Source: Bacillota bacterium (lineage in GTDB: Bacteria; Bacillota; DTU030; DUMP01). From it: a DNA stretch of 32,088 bases. The position numbers and the translations under genes were made by a program. The DNA is taken from NCBI GenBank assembly GCA_030153805.1, contig JASKLG010000012.1, positions 1 through 32,088 of the forward strand, read 5' to 3'. Below the pieces are notes generated by a model. The model saw only the letters and a list, made by a program, of their open reading frames with translations. It ran no database searches and was not told where the DNA came from. Positions 4,523 to 32,020 of the stretch are shown here, piece after piece; the first letter of the stretch is position 1; every line of letters begins with the position of its first letter.

Positions 4523-7303
4523 GGGGAAGTATCATGGTAGCCAACCCACCTGACTTCCTGAAGATGAGCGAAATCATAGGTGCGCGTTACCGGGGTTACC
4601 TGGAGACCATGTTTTACTTCCGGGATCCTGTGCTACGGGACTCGTTCCGCGAGGCGCTGGCTTCGGAAAACTTGATTAAGGGGCCTTACCTGGAGGCCAC
4701 TCCGGTTTTCGTACGGAGTGTCACCCCTCGGCAGCTGCTAGCGGAGCTGGGGATGCGCCCGGACGAGGGTTTTCTGCGTGCGGTGCAAGGAGACCGACCG
4801 CTTTACCGTCATCAGGAAGAAGCCATACGACGGATCGTCTCCGGGAGGAATGTGGTGGTCGCTACTGGCACCGGCAGCGGAAAGACGGAATCGTTTCTGC
4901 TACCCATCCTTTTCCACCTTTACCGCGAGTTTACCGCGGGATCACTGTGCCCCGGCGTGCGGGCACTCATCCTGTACCCCATGAACGCTCTTAGCAATGA
5001 TCAACGAGACCGGCTAGGGGAGATTGCGAGACGCCTCGAGGAAGCAGGATCCCCTTTTCGCTTTACATTTGGCCAGTACACTGGCGAGACCCCCGAGGAT
5101 GAGAACGACAGCGCGCGCAACGCCAAGGAGCGAGGGCGGGAACGGTTGCCGGGAGAACTGGTGTTTCGAAAGGAAATGAGAAGTTCCCCGCCTCACATCT
5201 TGCTGACGAACTACTCCATGCTCGAGTACTTGTTGATACGCCCAGACGACAGCCCCCTGTTCGACAACGGGAGGGCGTGCTGGTGGACCTTCCTGGTGTT
5301 AGACGAGGCCCATCAATATCGAGGCACCCGTGGCATGGAAATGGGAATGCTGCTGCGCCGCCTAAAGCAGCGACTCCGGCAAGGTGGACGCGGTTTGCCC
5401 TTTCAGTGCATTGCTACCAGCGCCACCCTCCTCGGCGGCGAGGCAGACCGCGGCGGGGCTGCGGATTTTGCTTCCGCTCTCTTCGATGAGCCGTTCACGC
5501 CGGACGACGTGATCATGGGGGAAGCGGAGCCGGTGAGGGGCCAAGGGCGGTACACGCTGTCGCAGGATGACTACCGTGTGATTAGAGAAGCACTGGCCGC
5601 CGAACTCCAGGAAACTCCTCCCGCTCTTCTGGCTTTGGCAAACCGGTGCGGAGTGCAGCTGTCTCCGAACGTGGACCCGCTGCGTGCTGCAGGGCACATT
5701 CTCGCTGCGGACACGAGGTCGGTCGGCCTCCGTAAACCCCTCTCGGCGGGGCCAGCGGATGTGCGCGCCATCGCGGAGGAGATCTTCCCGGACGTGCCAG
5801 CCGGAGAGCGGCTGTCTGCGCTGGGGACCTTGGTCCATATACTGTCTGTAGCCTCAGATCCCGGGGCGGCGGATGGCGACACGGGGATGCGGCCCACGTT
5901 GTTGGCTCCCCGCTACCACGTTTTCCTTCGTTCGCTGGAAGGCGCGTTCATATCGTACCTGCCCGAAAAGCGCATCTTCCTGAACAGGCGGCAGGGCGGG
6001 GAAGGAGCTAGCTTTGAGGTAGCCCTATGCCGTGAGTGCGGGCAACACTACTTGGTAGGCAAAATGGGAGGAGAGTCTCGAGCCGGTTACTTCCTTGAGG
6101 CTGTGCGTGATCCGAGCCACAGTGAGTTCGGGGTCGATTTCCTGCTTCCACTAGAGGATCAGGGGGCTCAACCCGAGGGGGAGGAGGGCGAAGGGGGAGA
6201 TGAAGAAGAGCCTCGCCGCCCATCCTCTGACCAGGAGCAGTTGTTTAATCTTTGCCTGCGCTGCCGAGCCTACTGGCGGGAGGGGTTACCCCCGTCGTGC
6301 GAGCACGGAGCGAACCCTGGAGCGGTTCTCCGCGTGATCCGACAACCGGTCACCGAGGGACAGGATGCCCTTCGTCGTTGTGGAGCTTGCGGGTACAGGG
6401 GGCCGGACCCCGTGCAGGAGGTGATCCACGGTGCTGACGGGCCTAGTGCCGTGATCGCGACAACACTGTACGAGGTGCTTCCGCCCGAGACCAGAAAGGT
6501 GCTGGCTTTTGCTGACGGCAGGCAGGAGGCCGCCTTTTTCGCCTGGTACCTGCAGCGTACCTACGAGGACTTGTTTTTCCGGAACCTTATGCTGAAGGCT
6601 GCCAGGCGTCTCATGCCCCACTCGCCGGAAGGGTTGTCTTTGAGAGATCTTGCCGACGAGTTACAAGCGATCATGAGCCGCGAGGGGATTGCTCCTGCGC
6701 ATACCTCGCCCATTGAACTCCGCCGACAGGCATGGCGGGCCGTCTTCCGAGAGTTCCTGACCACAGAAAAGAGAATCTGCTTAGAAGGTACCGGCTTGAG
6801 CCACTGGTCCATCCGCTGGCCTCCCTGGTTCCGCGTACCACCTGTGCTTCTCGGCGAACCGTGGCACCTGAGCGAGGACGAAGCCTGGGACCTTATGTTT
6901 ATGTTGCTGAACTCCATGAGGGAGACCAGGGCCGTCGAGCTGGTAGCTGATACTGCGCTCACCCTGACCTGGGAGCAGTTTAGCCTGCCCCTGCCCACAC
7001 GCTTCCGGATTGGCGCACCTGGAAAGCAGAAACGCGTAATAGCGTGGGATGGCCCGCGAGGCGCCCGAGCAAAGCTGCTGAAGAAGATACTGATCCACCG
7101 CGGCCTCGGCGCTGAAGAGGCGGAAAGCTGGGCGCTTCGCACTTTACGCGAGCTGTGGCAAGCCTTCGGAGATTTCGATCGCATGATTCCGGACAGCAGT
7201 CAGGGATTGCTTCTCGTCGCGGGGGGTGACGGCCGTCGCCTGAACCCGAACTGGTGGCGCTTCCGCGCGCTCGACCCCTCCGACCCCGTACTCCAGTGCG
7301 AGC

Positions 7304-28892: not shown

Positions 28893-29576
28893 ATGAGGGT
28901 ACAGAAGATGGCAGAGCAAACGCCGGGTTATCCTGGTGATAGTGAGCAAGGTGAGTCCTCAAGAGACCAAGAAGAGGAAGAGGAGGTTCTGCTGGAAGCC
29001 CACAGCTGCCCAAGTTTCTCGTGTGGGCGTAACCAAGGAATGGAAGAACAGAGCTCCCTTATGGCAGGTCGGCCCGTCCATGTGCCCCCGGTTGTGGGGA
29101 GTTTAGTCAACGCCTATGTGATATGCCGTAGGAAGGCCTGGCTCATGTACAGGCAGATATCCCCGGATGAAGACAACGTGTTTTTACATATGGGGCGGCT
29201 TATCCAGGGCCAGAGCTATGGCCGCGAGCGCAAAGAAGTGCGCCTGGAACATTTGAGCCTTGACCTTATCCGCAGGGACGATGAGAACCTGATAGTGGCG
29301 GAGGTCAAAAAGTCGTCCCGGGCCCGGGCGGCTGCGCGGATGCAGCTTGCCTTTTATCTCTACGAGCTGCGGGAGATGGGGATCGAGGCCAAGGGCGAAT
29401 TGCTCTTTCCCGAAGAGCGACGGCGGGAGCGGATGGTCCTGGACGAAAGCCTGGCGCAGCAGGTGGAACACCTGAAAGAGAGCGTCCTGATGCTGGTTTT
29501 GCAGGAACAAGCTCCGCCGCCAGAAAGGACTTCTTTTTGCAATAAGTGCGCCTATACTGAATTTTGCTGGGCATAA
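28893..29576 (+). CDS. cas4: Cas4, RecB-like exonuclease with 4Fe-4S cluster
   Basis: The 227-aa product carries Cys78 in YVICRRKAWLMYR, the nuclease E-x-K in LIVAEVKKSS (Glu137, Lys139), QLAFYLYEL, and C-terminal Cys216, Cys219 and Cys225 (FCNKCAYTEFCWA). These four cysteines bind the iron-sulfur cluster. Cas4 trims prespacers and selects for the PAM with Cas1-Cas2. The first 50-60 residues are an unusual acidic extension (a run of five Glu at 27-31) not normal for Cas4. Starts at ATG 29040 or 29061 would give the usual length but lack a usable ribosome-binding site, whereas 28893 and 28908 have one. I keep 28893. Confidence 0.88.
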   Translation: MRVQKMAEQTPGYPGDSEQGESSRDQEEEEEVLLEAHSCPSFSCGRNQGMEEQSSLMAGRPVHVPPVVGSLVNAYVICRRKAWLMYRQISPDEDNVFLHMGRLIQGQSYGRERKEVRLEHLSLDLIRRDDENLIVAEVKKSSRARAAARMQLAFYLYELREMGIEAKGELLFPEERRRERMVLDESLAQQVEHLKESVLMLVLQEQAPPPERTSFCNKCAYTEFCWA

Positions 29577-30597: not shown

Positions 30598-30861
30598 ATG
30601 TACGTTATTCTCGTCTACGACGTTAACGTATCCCGCGTGGGCAAGGTGCTGAAAACCGCCCGCCGGTATCTTACCTGGGTGCAGAACTCGGTGCTCGAAG
30701 GCGAGCTTACCGAAGCCACCTTTCGCGCCCTGCGAAGCGATCTGGCACGCGTTATCGACACCAAGGAGGATTCCGTGCTTTTTTACATTTTGGGGCACGA
30801 AAAGTACGCCAGAAGAGAACTTATGGGTGTTCGCAAAGGCGGCGAGGATTGGGTTTTCTGA
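30598..30861 (+). CDS. cas2: Cas2, integration complex subunit
   Basis: The 87-aa ferredoxin-fold protein starts MYVILVYDVNVSRVGKVLKT, with the conserved Asp8. It contains YLTWVQNSVLEGELTE and DSVLFYILGHEKY, all standard for Cas2 of the Cas1-Cas2 spacer-insertion complex. It is the last cas gene and lies immediately before the array leader. Confidence 0.96.
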   Translation: MYVILVYDVNVSRVGKVLKTARRYLTWVQNSVLEGELTEATFRALRSDLARVIDTKEDSVLFYILGHEKYARRELMGVRKGGEDWVF

Positions 30862-31128
30862 CAGGAGCCGGATGTTTTTTTCCGGCTTCCGCGCGAGAAA
30901 GTGCTGGAGATGGGGCGGGCGGCTCTGCGCTGTGCAAAGTTTCGGAGCCCGGCAGGAATTTTGTCGTCGATGTCCAATAATGCAAAAAAGCCCGGAGTTC
31001 GACGACAACCTGCCGGCGGACAAAACCCGCACCCGGCGCGGCAGGGACAGCTTTCGGCCCGAACAGATGCAAGGACAAGGGAGCGCACGGCGGGAAGAGG
31101 AATCCTTAATCTATGCGCCCCAAATGGG
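30862..31128 (+). promoter_or_regulatory. Leader of CRISPR array 2
   Basis: These 267 nt between cas2 and the first repeat are on the correct side for a leader, given that the repeats end in the 8-nt tag ATTGAAAC. A 6-bp hairpin AGCCGG/CCGGCT (30866-30887) with a T-rich loop follows cas2. A long inverted repeat occupies 30949-31016. Just before the first repeat is GGAATCCTTAATC (31099-31111), nearly complementary to part of spacer 1. No clear sigma-A promoter was identified. Confidence 0.75.
30949..31016. repeat. Extended inverted repeat in the leader
   Basis: The left arm is CCGGCAGG (30949-30956), a 4-nt bulge AATT, then TTGTCGTCGA (30961-30970). The right arm is TCGACGACAA (30999-31008) directly followed by CCTGCCGG (31009-31016). 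All 18 pairs are perfect. The 28-nt loop contains an A6 tract. Confidence 0.9.
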
Positions 31129-32020
31129 GTTTCCAGCCTACCTACGAGGGATTGAAACTCTTGATTAAGGAATCCTATGATTTCCGCAACTTCTTGTGTC
31201 CAGCCTACCTACGAGGGATTGAAACTCCACCAAGCGGAACCCGTCATCCTCCAGTTCCCCGGTTTCCAGCCTACCTACGAGGGATTGAAACTCCCGAATA
31301 TCTCTTCCTCAACAAATTTCACGAATTCGTTTCCAGCCTACCTACGAGGGATTGAAACTTCACGACAGCAGTGCTTTATATTTTCCGGGAAATGTTTCCA
31401 GCCTACCTACGAGGGATTGAAACAAGTACCTGCAAGATGAAGGGGTTATCAAGTCACCGTTTCCAGCCTACCTACGAGGGATTGAAACGCTTGTTATATT
31501 CTTTTTCCGGTAAATAAACTGCAGGTTTCCAGCCTACCTACGAGGGATTGAAACATCTTGTATCCCCCCCGAATTACACGAACGGGGGGAAGTTTCCAGC
31601 CTACCTACGAGGGATTGAAACAGAGCAAAGAAAGACCTATACGCTTCCCGTACCTCAGTTTCCAGCCTACCTACGAGGGATTGAAACACGCTTCCGCAGC
31701 ATACGGCAGCGGCTCAACGTCCCGTTTCCAGCCTACCTACGAGGGATTGAAACATATGGTGGACGTCGGTGGCCGGCACCACTCTTCCGTTTCCAGCCTA
31801 CCTACGAGGGATTGAAACTGCATTTCGTTGAAGGACGTGACCTCCTCCCACCCCGTTTCCAGCCTACCTACGAGGGATTGAAACCAAGAACGGAGATATA
31901 GTTGGTGCGGCAGGAGTACTACGGTTTCCAGCCTACCTACGAGGGATTGAAACCGGTACTTCAACATCATACTCAACCTCCCTCAAAATGGTTTCCAGCC
32001 TACCTACGAGGGATTGAAAC
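31129..32020 (+). CRISPR. CRISPR array 2, 14 repeats of 30 nt, 13 spacers
   Basis: Repeats begin at 31129, 31196, 31262, 31329, 31394, 31459, 31525, 31592, 31658, 31724, 31789, 31855, 31924 and 31991. Each starts GTTTCCAGCC and ends GGGATTGAAAC. Spacers are 35-39 nt. The 8-nt tag ATTGAAAC at the 3' end sets plus-strand transcription, consistent with the leader and cas2 on the left. All copies are identical except the second (31196), which has GTG instead of GTT at its first three bases. The last repeat is intact and no further repeat occurs in the final 68 nt. This repeat family suits I-B. None of the spacers showed an obvious match elsewhere in the window by eye. Confidence 0.98.

What the first reader, a model, noticed from the sequence alone, without database searches (positions are those of the whole stretch)
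30949..31016. Long bulged inverted repeat inside the array 2 leader
Arms of 8+10 bp are perfectly paired with only a 4-nt bulge, about 115 nt before the first repeat. It could be a binding site for the integration complex or a host factor, an RNA element at the start of the pre-crRNA, or a regulatory hairpin between cas2 and the array.
Basis: seen in the sequence. Interest (0 to 1): 0.52.

Follow-up and report, generated by a model that had tools for sequence, protein, structure and literature searches.

The report
Phased DNA docking element in CRISPR leader
The hairpin-like sequence in front of this CRISPR array is a 46-letter DNA signal, shared by many bacteria and kept at distances of whole helix turns from the first repeat, which suggests it helps bend the DNA so that new virus memories are inserted at the right spot.

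Summary
The inverted repeat is real (8+10 bp, AATT bulge, 28-nt loop; 0 of 200 shuffled windows have one). Its inner part is a conserved 46-bp element, TGTCGTCGAcctccRRTARYGYAAAAAccccyGGrgrTCGACGACA (window 30962-31007), in the leader of essentially every array with the repeat GTTTNNAGCCTACCTATRAGGRATTGAAAC next to I-B cas4-cas1-cas2, mainly in Firmicutes. The arms are conserved as sequence, with little compensatory change and no G.U preference: a dyad-symmetric DNA site rather than an RNA hairpin. Distances from element to first repeat are quantised near 97, 109, 120, 132, 144 and 155 bp: period 11.7 bp (95% 11.3-12.1), close to the 11.60 bp/turn fitted for Lac-repressor loops in vivo. Distances to the cas2 stop or predicted promoters are not phased. 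Leaders with other repeats carry the element inverted, mostly at 52-54 bp, near the same register. Three virus-derived contigs carry it. Best reading: an upstream docking site for the Cas1-Cas2 adaptation complex or a partner, working through a phased loop. Binding is untested. Intact elements also occur in genomes lacking cas1, so a transcriptional role stays open. A leader-motif survey that I could not read may already list the motif.

The parts
30962..31007 (+). conserved 46-bp dyad-symmetric leader element (the feature)
   Evidence: profile and BLAST matches in 60 of 80 cas1 neighbourhoods plus further genomes; alignment A1
30962..30970 (+). left arm TGTCGTCGA
   Evidence: positions 5-7 of the 46-mer (window 30966-30968) are 60/61, 61/61 and 61/61 identical
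30976..30988 (+). conserved non-palindromic core AATAATGCAAAAA (RRTARYGYAAAAA), gives the element its direction
30999..31007 (+). right arm TCGACGACA
   Evidence: G, A, C at positions 40-42 (window 31001-31003) 61/61 identical
30949..30956 (+). outer left arm CCGGCAGG, nearest relatives only
   Evidence: flanking columns not conserved
31009..31016 (+). outer right arm CCTGCCGG, nearest relatives only
31108..31128 (+). leader-proximal part with weak conserved pattern (T-rich -20..-16, GCG-like -13..-11, AAYGG at -5..-1 before the repeat)
   Evidence: column information in 96 leader representatives
31129..31158 (+). first CRISPR repeat GTTTCCAGCCTACCTACGAGGGATTGAAAC (the phase reference)
31129..32020 (+). 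CRISPR array, 14 repeats, running towards the contig end
   Evidence: window is the whole contig
30598..30861 (+). cas2
   Evidence: TIGR01573
29599..30594 (+). cas1, type I-B
   Evidence: TIGR03641, 445 bits against a cut-off of 304
28893..29576 (+). cas4
   Evidence: TIGR00372

Best explanation
The element is a long-range cis signal for spacer acquisition, acting as double-stranded DNA. A two-fold symmetric protein binds the two TGTCGTCGA half-sites; most likely this is the Cas1-Cas2(-Cas4) integration complex through its symmetric Cas2 core, or else a dedicated bending partner. The leader between element and first repeat is bent or looped, and the complex touches element and leader-repeat junction together, so that the first integration happens only there. 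The loop must close with both sites on one helix face, so allowed spacings come in steps of one apparent helical turn (about 11.7 bp). SHOWN here: conservation; dyad-symmetric but hardly covarying arms; phasing to the repeat; nearly the same register with the core inverted; association with this repeat family and with cas1 TIGR03641. INFERRED: that protein binding and looping cause the phasing, that the bound protein is the adaptation complex, and that the output is spacer integration.
For: Spacing comb: 67 loci, Rayleigh R 0.70 at 11.6 bp against a maximum of 0.44 in 2000 jittered controls; one per leader cluster (45, 80 or 113 clusters) mean R 0.55-0.61, 0 of 2000 controls as high each time, period 11.7 with bootstrap 95% 11.25-12.10. 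Later loci: 13 of 14 measurable distances inside bands written into that script; two were already known, leaving 11 of 12. Controls: cas2 stop to element not phased (max R 0.34) where element to repeat in the same 35 loci is (0.82); element to predicted -10 box not phased (max R 0.22). Inverted class: 11 of 13 at 52-54 bp, others 64 and 123, offsets of about 1-3 bp from the forward comb. Fixed 46-bp size and conserved core. Association: genomes with 3 or more copies of the repeat pattern have the element in 61 of 64, other genomes 60 of 334; element and cas1 TIGR03641 together in 93 genomes, one without the other in 28 and 28 of 398. Precedent: type I-F Cas2 contacts conserved inverted-repeat leader motifs in an IHF-folded leader (PMC12259127, passages). 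Period: the helical repeat fitted to Lac loops in vivo is 11.60 bp/turn in one data set and 11.08 in another (PMC1762422, passages).
Against: No binding or acquisition data. Of 28 genomes with the element but without TIGR03641, I tested 15 for any Cas1 (PF01867): 11 have none at E 1e-10, among them the single-contig G158 (also no cas2 or cas3 hit), G300 and G385, yet their elements score well; selection for acquisition alone would need recent loss there. 28 genomes have TIGR03641 but no element at E 0.001. Three genomes have the repeat at 3 or more copies but no element hit (G022, G038, G180). Some distances fall between the bands (e.g. 114, 126-128, 135). The new-only clusters alone (n 16) were not significant when the period was left free (596 of 3000 controls as high). 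No IHF-like partner was identified.
Confidence: 0.6

Rival explanations
1. Upstream activator or repressor site for array transcription: a dimeric regulator binds the element and controls the pre-crRNA promoter between element and array, through a loop or by contact.
For: Strong sigma70-like promoters lie between element and array in many AT-rich relatives (for example TTGACA-17-TAAAAT starting 20 bp after the element in L046 and L059). Intact elements persist in genomes without any detected Cas1, where arrays may still be expressed for interference.
Against: Phasing is to the repeat, not to predicted -10 boxes (R 0.04 at 11.6, max 0.22), though promoter calls are noisy. The inverted class sits mostly at 52-54 bp, leaving little room for a promoter between. 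No regulator gene was identified.
Confidence: 0.2
2. Structured RNA: the hairpin is part of a cas2-array read-through transcript or the 5' end of the pre-crRNA and binds Cas6 or another protein, or controls stability.
For: Very stable fold in the window, z -6.6. Some pairs change on both sides: cells with a change on both sides 32 against a shuffled mean of 18.4, 0 of 500 shuffles as high. Outer GC arm partly kept in near relatives.
Against: RNAalifold covariation term -0.06. Watson-Crick pairs barely exceed independence; departures in the outer nine pairs are A.C 27 and G.T 13, expected 35 and 19, where an RNA stem should favour G.U. No Rfam match to E 1. Quantised spacing and an inverted class are not expected of an RNA. 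Promoters downstream of it in many relatives.
Confidence: 0.07
3. Conserved boundary or transposition scar without a role in acquisition: the spacing comb reflects stepwise insertion or deletion of roughly 12-bp units.
For: Multi-array genomes copy leader and element together (G158).
Against: Leaders between element and repeat are otherwise little conserved, and the same comb appears across 45-113 leader clusters and, within about 1-3 bp, in the inverted class with other repeats.
Confidence: 0.05

Closest known systems
Type I-F CRISPR leader inverted-repeat motifs bound by Cas2 in the IHF-folded Cas1-2/3 integration complex (PMC12259127, passages read)
   Same: An inverted-repeat leader motif upstream of the first repeat; by our inference part of a folded leader; a symmetric Cas2 dimer could read dyad symmetry.
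   Different: Different subtype; no sequence comparison made. Here a single 46-bp element with a conserved core, many allowed spacings from 52 to 155 bp, and no IHF partner identified.
Phased upstream motifs of IHF-dependent leaders (Santiago-Frangos et al. 2021, Curr Biol, PMC8552246; citation seen, content recalled, not held)
   Same: Leader motif whose helical phase to the repeat matters (recalled).
   Different: Those depend on IHF, as recalled. I do not recall the I-B comb over five to six turns from that work, and I could not check it.
CRISPR leader motif survey (Buyukyoruk et al. 2025, CRISPR J, PMC12171695; citation only, not held)
   Same: Catalogues leader motifs by subtype; may already list this motif.
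   Different: Cannot be judged.
Sulfolobus islandicus I-A leader: Csa3a distal motif and Cas1-bound proximal stem-loop (PMC9456107, abstract and passages read)
   Same: Distal and proximal leader signals both matter for acquisition.
   Different: Archaeal I-A; the distal factor is Csa3a; no homologue was sought here.

Membership tests
CRISPR leader upstream motif for adaptation (works-like class) | lies in the leader at a set place upstream of the first repeat | tested here: met
CRISPR leader upstream motif for adaptation (works-like class) | conserved with one repeat family and adaptation-gene family | tested here: met
   61 of 64 repeat-bearing genomes; 93 of 121 element genomes with cas1 TIGR03641
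CRISPR leader upstream motif for adaptation (works-like class) | helical phase relative to the repeat | tested here: met
CRISPR leader upstream motif for adaptation (works-like class) | bound by Cas1-Cas2 or partner and needed for spacer acquisition | not testable with these tools
   needs EMSA or footprint and an acquisition assay
IHF-dependent leaders | IHF site between motif and repeat; IHF genes in the host | not tested
   core only compared by eye with a recalled IHF consensus
Structured RNA leader or Rfam family | compensatory base changes supporting a stem | tested here: inconclusive
   covariation term -0.06, no G.U preference, but some double changes above shuffles
Structured RNA leader or Rfam family | match to a described family | tested here: not met
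   no match to E 1 in 30840-31140
Intrinsic terminator of cas2 | GC hairpin with loop 3-8 and a T run | tested here: not met
   no site at 30949-31016

The most novel reading that the evidence does not exclude
An orientation-tolerant DNA docking element for CRISPR adaptation, shared by several repeat families and copied onto virus-borne short arrays, whose natural spacings across many species record the in vivo (supercoiled) helical repeat near 11.6-11.7 bp. Firmicutes I-B integration would then need a phased leader loop without IHF, and virus arrays bearing the element could be fed by the host's integrase.
Probability: 0.4. Interest if true: 0.8.

Novelty: new variant of a known kind. Interest (0 to 1): 0.63.

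Why it matters
How I-B Cas1-Cas2 finds the leader end in bacteria is, to my knowledge, open. A defined 46-bp signal with a sharp spacing rule turns it into a direct experiment: shift by half a turn or a full turn and measure acquisition. The comb is also a comparative read-out of DNA looping in living cells across many lineages. The element marks leaders, array orientation and virus-borne arrays, so it is useful for annotation.

Tried and rejected
RNA hairpin: tested by pair statistics, RNAalifold, pair counts, G.U against A.C, and Rfam; not supported, though some double changes exceed shuffles. Terminator: none at the site. cas2-bound 3' UTR element: the spacing to cas2 is not phased and the element also fronts cas-distant arrays. 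Promoter-bound site: not phased to predicted -10 boxes, but the predictions are weak and none was found upstream of the array in the GC-rich window. Named plasmid and phage collections: no match with the window element; virus contigs: 3 matches to a strict pattern.

Dropped or corrected rows. One search left out L062, L078, L099 and L100 and repeats of identical cores. One search set L042, L063 and L085 by hand and left out L013 and L081 (contig end before any repeat). L082, L085 and L063 re-set; L192 (203) and L216 (198) left out; repeat starts of L014, L027, L079, L129, L140 and L228 set by a typed motif; the bands were drawn; 162 of 179 inside, and L082 and L085 among the 17 outside are regex errors. 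The 60-percent clustering was uninformative (3 clusters; shuffled leaders reach 0.63 identity). One search filtered elements on arm letters at positions 6-7 and 40-42, so invariance there is partly by construction (not). One search used inverted-class distances typed by eye; one search recomputed or re-read them (L237 is 123, not 122). One search's repeat count failed (my pattern); distances for G158 come. In one search, 18 new loci: 14 with a repeat, 4 without (L254, L255 and L267 cut by the contig end; L272 no array downstream); L270's repeat is not of the family. In one search the handle lists were copied by hand.

Full report
Observation. The bulged inverted repeat exists exactly as described (30949-31016) and is not a chance feature: 0 of 200 shuffled windows contain one of that geometry, and the folding z-score is -6.6. 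It lies between cas2 (ends 30861) and the first of 14 repeats (31129). The locus is type I-B (cas7/Cst2, cas5, cas3, cas4, cas1 TIGR03641, cas2) beside type III genes. The window is a whole contig of a draft genome of 1.7 Mb.

Conservation. A search with Cas1 gave 80 loci. A profile of the inverted repeat hits 60 of those 80. Of the other 20, a de novo array search found arrays in only three: L043 and L048 upstream of cas1 with the leader outside the stretch, and L065 downstream, where a diverged copy can be read by eye at 5279. Every downstream array found in the set therefore has the element, L065 by eye. What is conserved is a 46-bp unit of constant length in nearly all (30962-31007 here): arms TGTCGTCGA and TCGACGACA and an asymmetric core RRTARYGYAAAAA.

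DNA or RNA. In 61 distinct elements the numbers of Watson-Crick pairs are about those expected from independent columns; in 168 elements likewise for most pairs, with A.C mismatches (27) outnumbering G.T (13) in the outer nine pairs. RNAalifold's covariation term is -0.06. Against this, pair counting finds more double changes than shuffles do (32 against 18.4), and a few lineages changed both arms together, which a symmetric protein reading both half-sites would also cause. No Rfam family matches. I conclude that this is a dyad-symmetric DNA site.

Spacing comb. Measured from the end of the 46-mer to the first repeat, distances fall into bands at 96-100, 105-110, 117-123, 129-134 and 141-146 bp. 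In 67 loci the concentration at a period of 11.6 bp is 0.70; the best of 2000 jittered controls is 0.44. To limit relatedness I took one leader per similarity cluster: 45, 80 or 113 clusters give 0.55-0.61 with 0 of 2000 controls as high, and a period of 11.7 (bootstrap 11.25-12.10). In the enlarged set 162 of 179 lie in the bands. New-only clusters (16) were not significant with a free period, whereas all 111 new loci were (R 0.687, 0 of 3000), though these include relatives of known leaders. In a later draw from two classes, 13 of 14 measurable distances (11 of 12 not already in hand) lie in bands fixed in that script, which cover about 55% of 90-160 bp by my count. The window's value is 121. 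The controls are flat: cas2 stop to element (max R 0.34, against 0.82 for element to repeat in the same 35 loci) and element to the best predicted -10 box (max R 0.22).

Meaning of 11.7. Free B-DNA would give about 10.5; the concentration there is weak (0.26-0.27 over clusters at thresholds 0.65 and above). A fit of Lac repressor loops in living E. coli gave 11.60 bp/turn for one data set and 11.08 for another, put down to negative supercoiling (PMC1762422, passages). The comb is what a loop between element and leader-repeat junction in supercoiled DNA would leave behind.

Second architecture. Some leaders carry the element with its core reversed. They belong to other repeat families (GTTTTAATNGAACCATTGTGGGRTGGAAAS and GTTTNTGACCCGRCTATAGGGGACGGAAAC types, among others). 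Of 13 with a measurable distance, 11 are at 52-54 bp, one at 64 and one at 123, about 1-3 bp off the forward comb. One such locus sits next to the same cas1 family (G097). Arms, not core, therefore seem to set the register.

Distribution. In 398 genomes of the phylum, 121 have the element, 121 have cas1 TIGR03641, and 64 have at least three exact copies of TACCTATRAGGRATTGAAAC. The element is in 61 of those 64 and in 60 of the other 334; with cas1 it is shared by 93, with 28 and 28 one-sided. G158 has ten elements in 22 kb, and the distances read there are 120 bp. A strict pattern hit three virus-derived contigs: L285 has the element 121 bp from a short array beside phage genes (Sipho_Gp37, Amidase_2); L286 has an inverted one 53 bp from three repeats beside a gene with a Cas12f1-like TNB domain; L287 begins inside the same leader. 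Named phage and plasmid collections gave none.

Mechanism. The closest precedent is type I-F, where Cas2 contacts conserved inverted-repeat leader motifs in an IHF-folded leader (PMC12259127, passages). By analogy the I-B element would dock the symmetric Cas2/Cas1 core, or a bending partner, while the same complex engages the first repeat. Shown: conservation, dyad symmetry, phasing, association. Inferred: binding, looping, effect on acquisition. The strongest contrary result is that 11 of 15 element-bearing, TIGR03641-negative genomes have no Cas1 at all, including single-contig genomes with well-scoring elements; in G300 the gap between the cas3 reading frame and cas2 (about 560 bp) is too short for cas1. 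Recent loss, or a role in array transcription, could explain this.

Novelty. My searches for a printed description used the arm letters, leader plus inverted repeat, upstream motif plus IHF, phasing, and leader motif. None of the listings showed this motif, but the most relevant survey (Buyukyoruk et al. 2025) and the phasing paper (Santiago-Frangos et al. 2021) are not held, so the motif itself may be listed there. I file it as a new variant of a known kind: a leader upstream motif, in a subtype and with a spacing rule that I have not seen described.

Noticed in passing
   Followed up: no
window 31163-31176 against 31098-31111: The first spacer carries a 13-of-14 inverted match to the end of the leader (I2): chance, or a spacer taken from the leader.
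   Followed up: no
window 31196-31225: The second repeat differs by one base (GTGTCC instead of GTTTCC) while the other 13 are identical.
   Followed up: no
L285 3050-3602 (minus strand): Virus-derived contig with a short I-B-type array, leader element in register (121 bp), next to an N-acetylmuramoyl-L-alanine amidase gene and phage structural genes.
   Followed up: partly
L286 3870-5597: Virus-derived contig with an inverted element, three repeats and a flanking gene with a Cas12f1-like TNB domain.
   Followed up: partly
L165 and L166 (G158, 22 kb): Ten elements, most fronting arrays, in a one-contig genome with no detected cas1, cas2 or cas3.
   Followed up: partly
L051:6725-6749: Sequence directly after a repeat matches the right half of the element (CTGGAGATCGACGACA): perhaps a spacer taken from a leader.
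   Followed up: no
L241, L243, L244: Elements with no array or only one decayed repeat beside them, possible leader fossils.
   Followed up: partly
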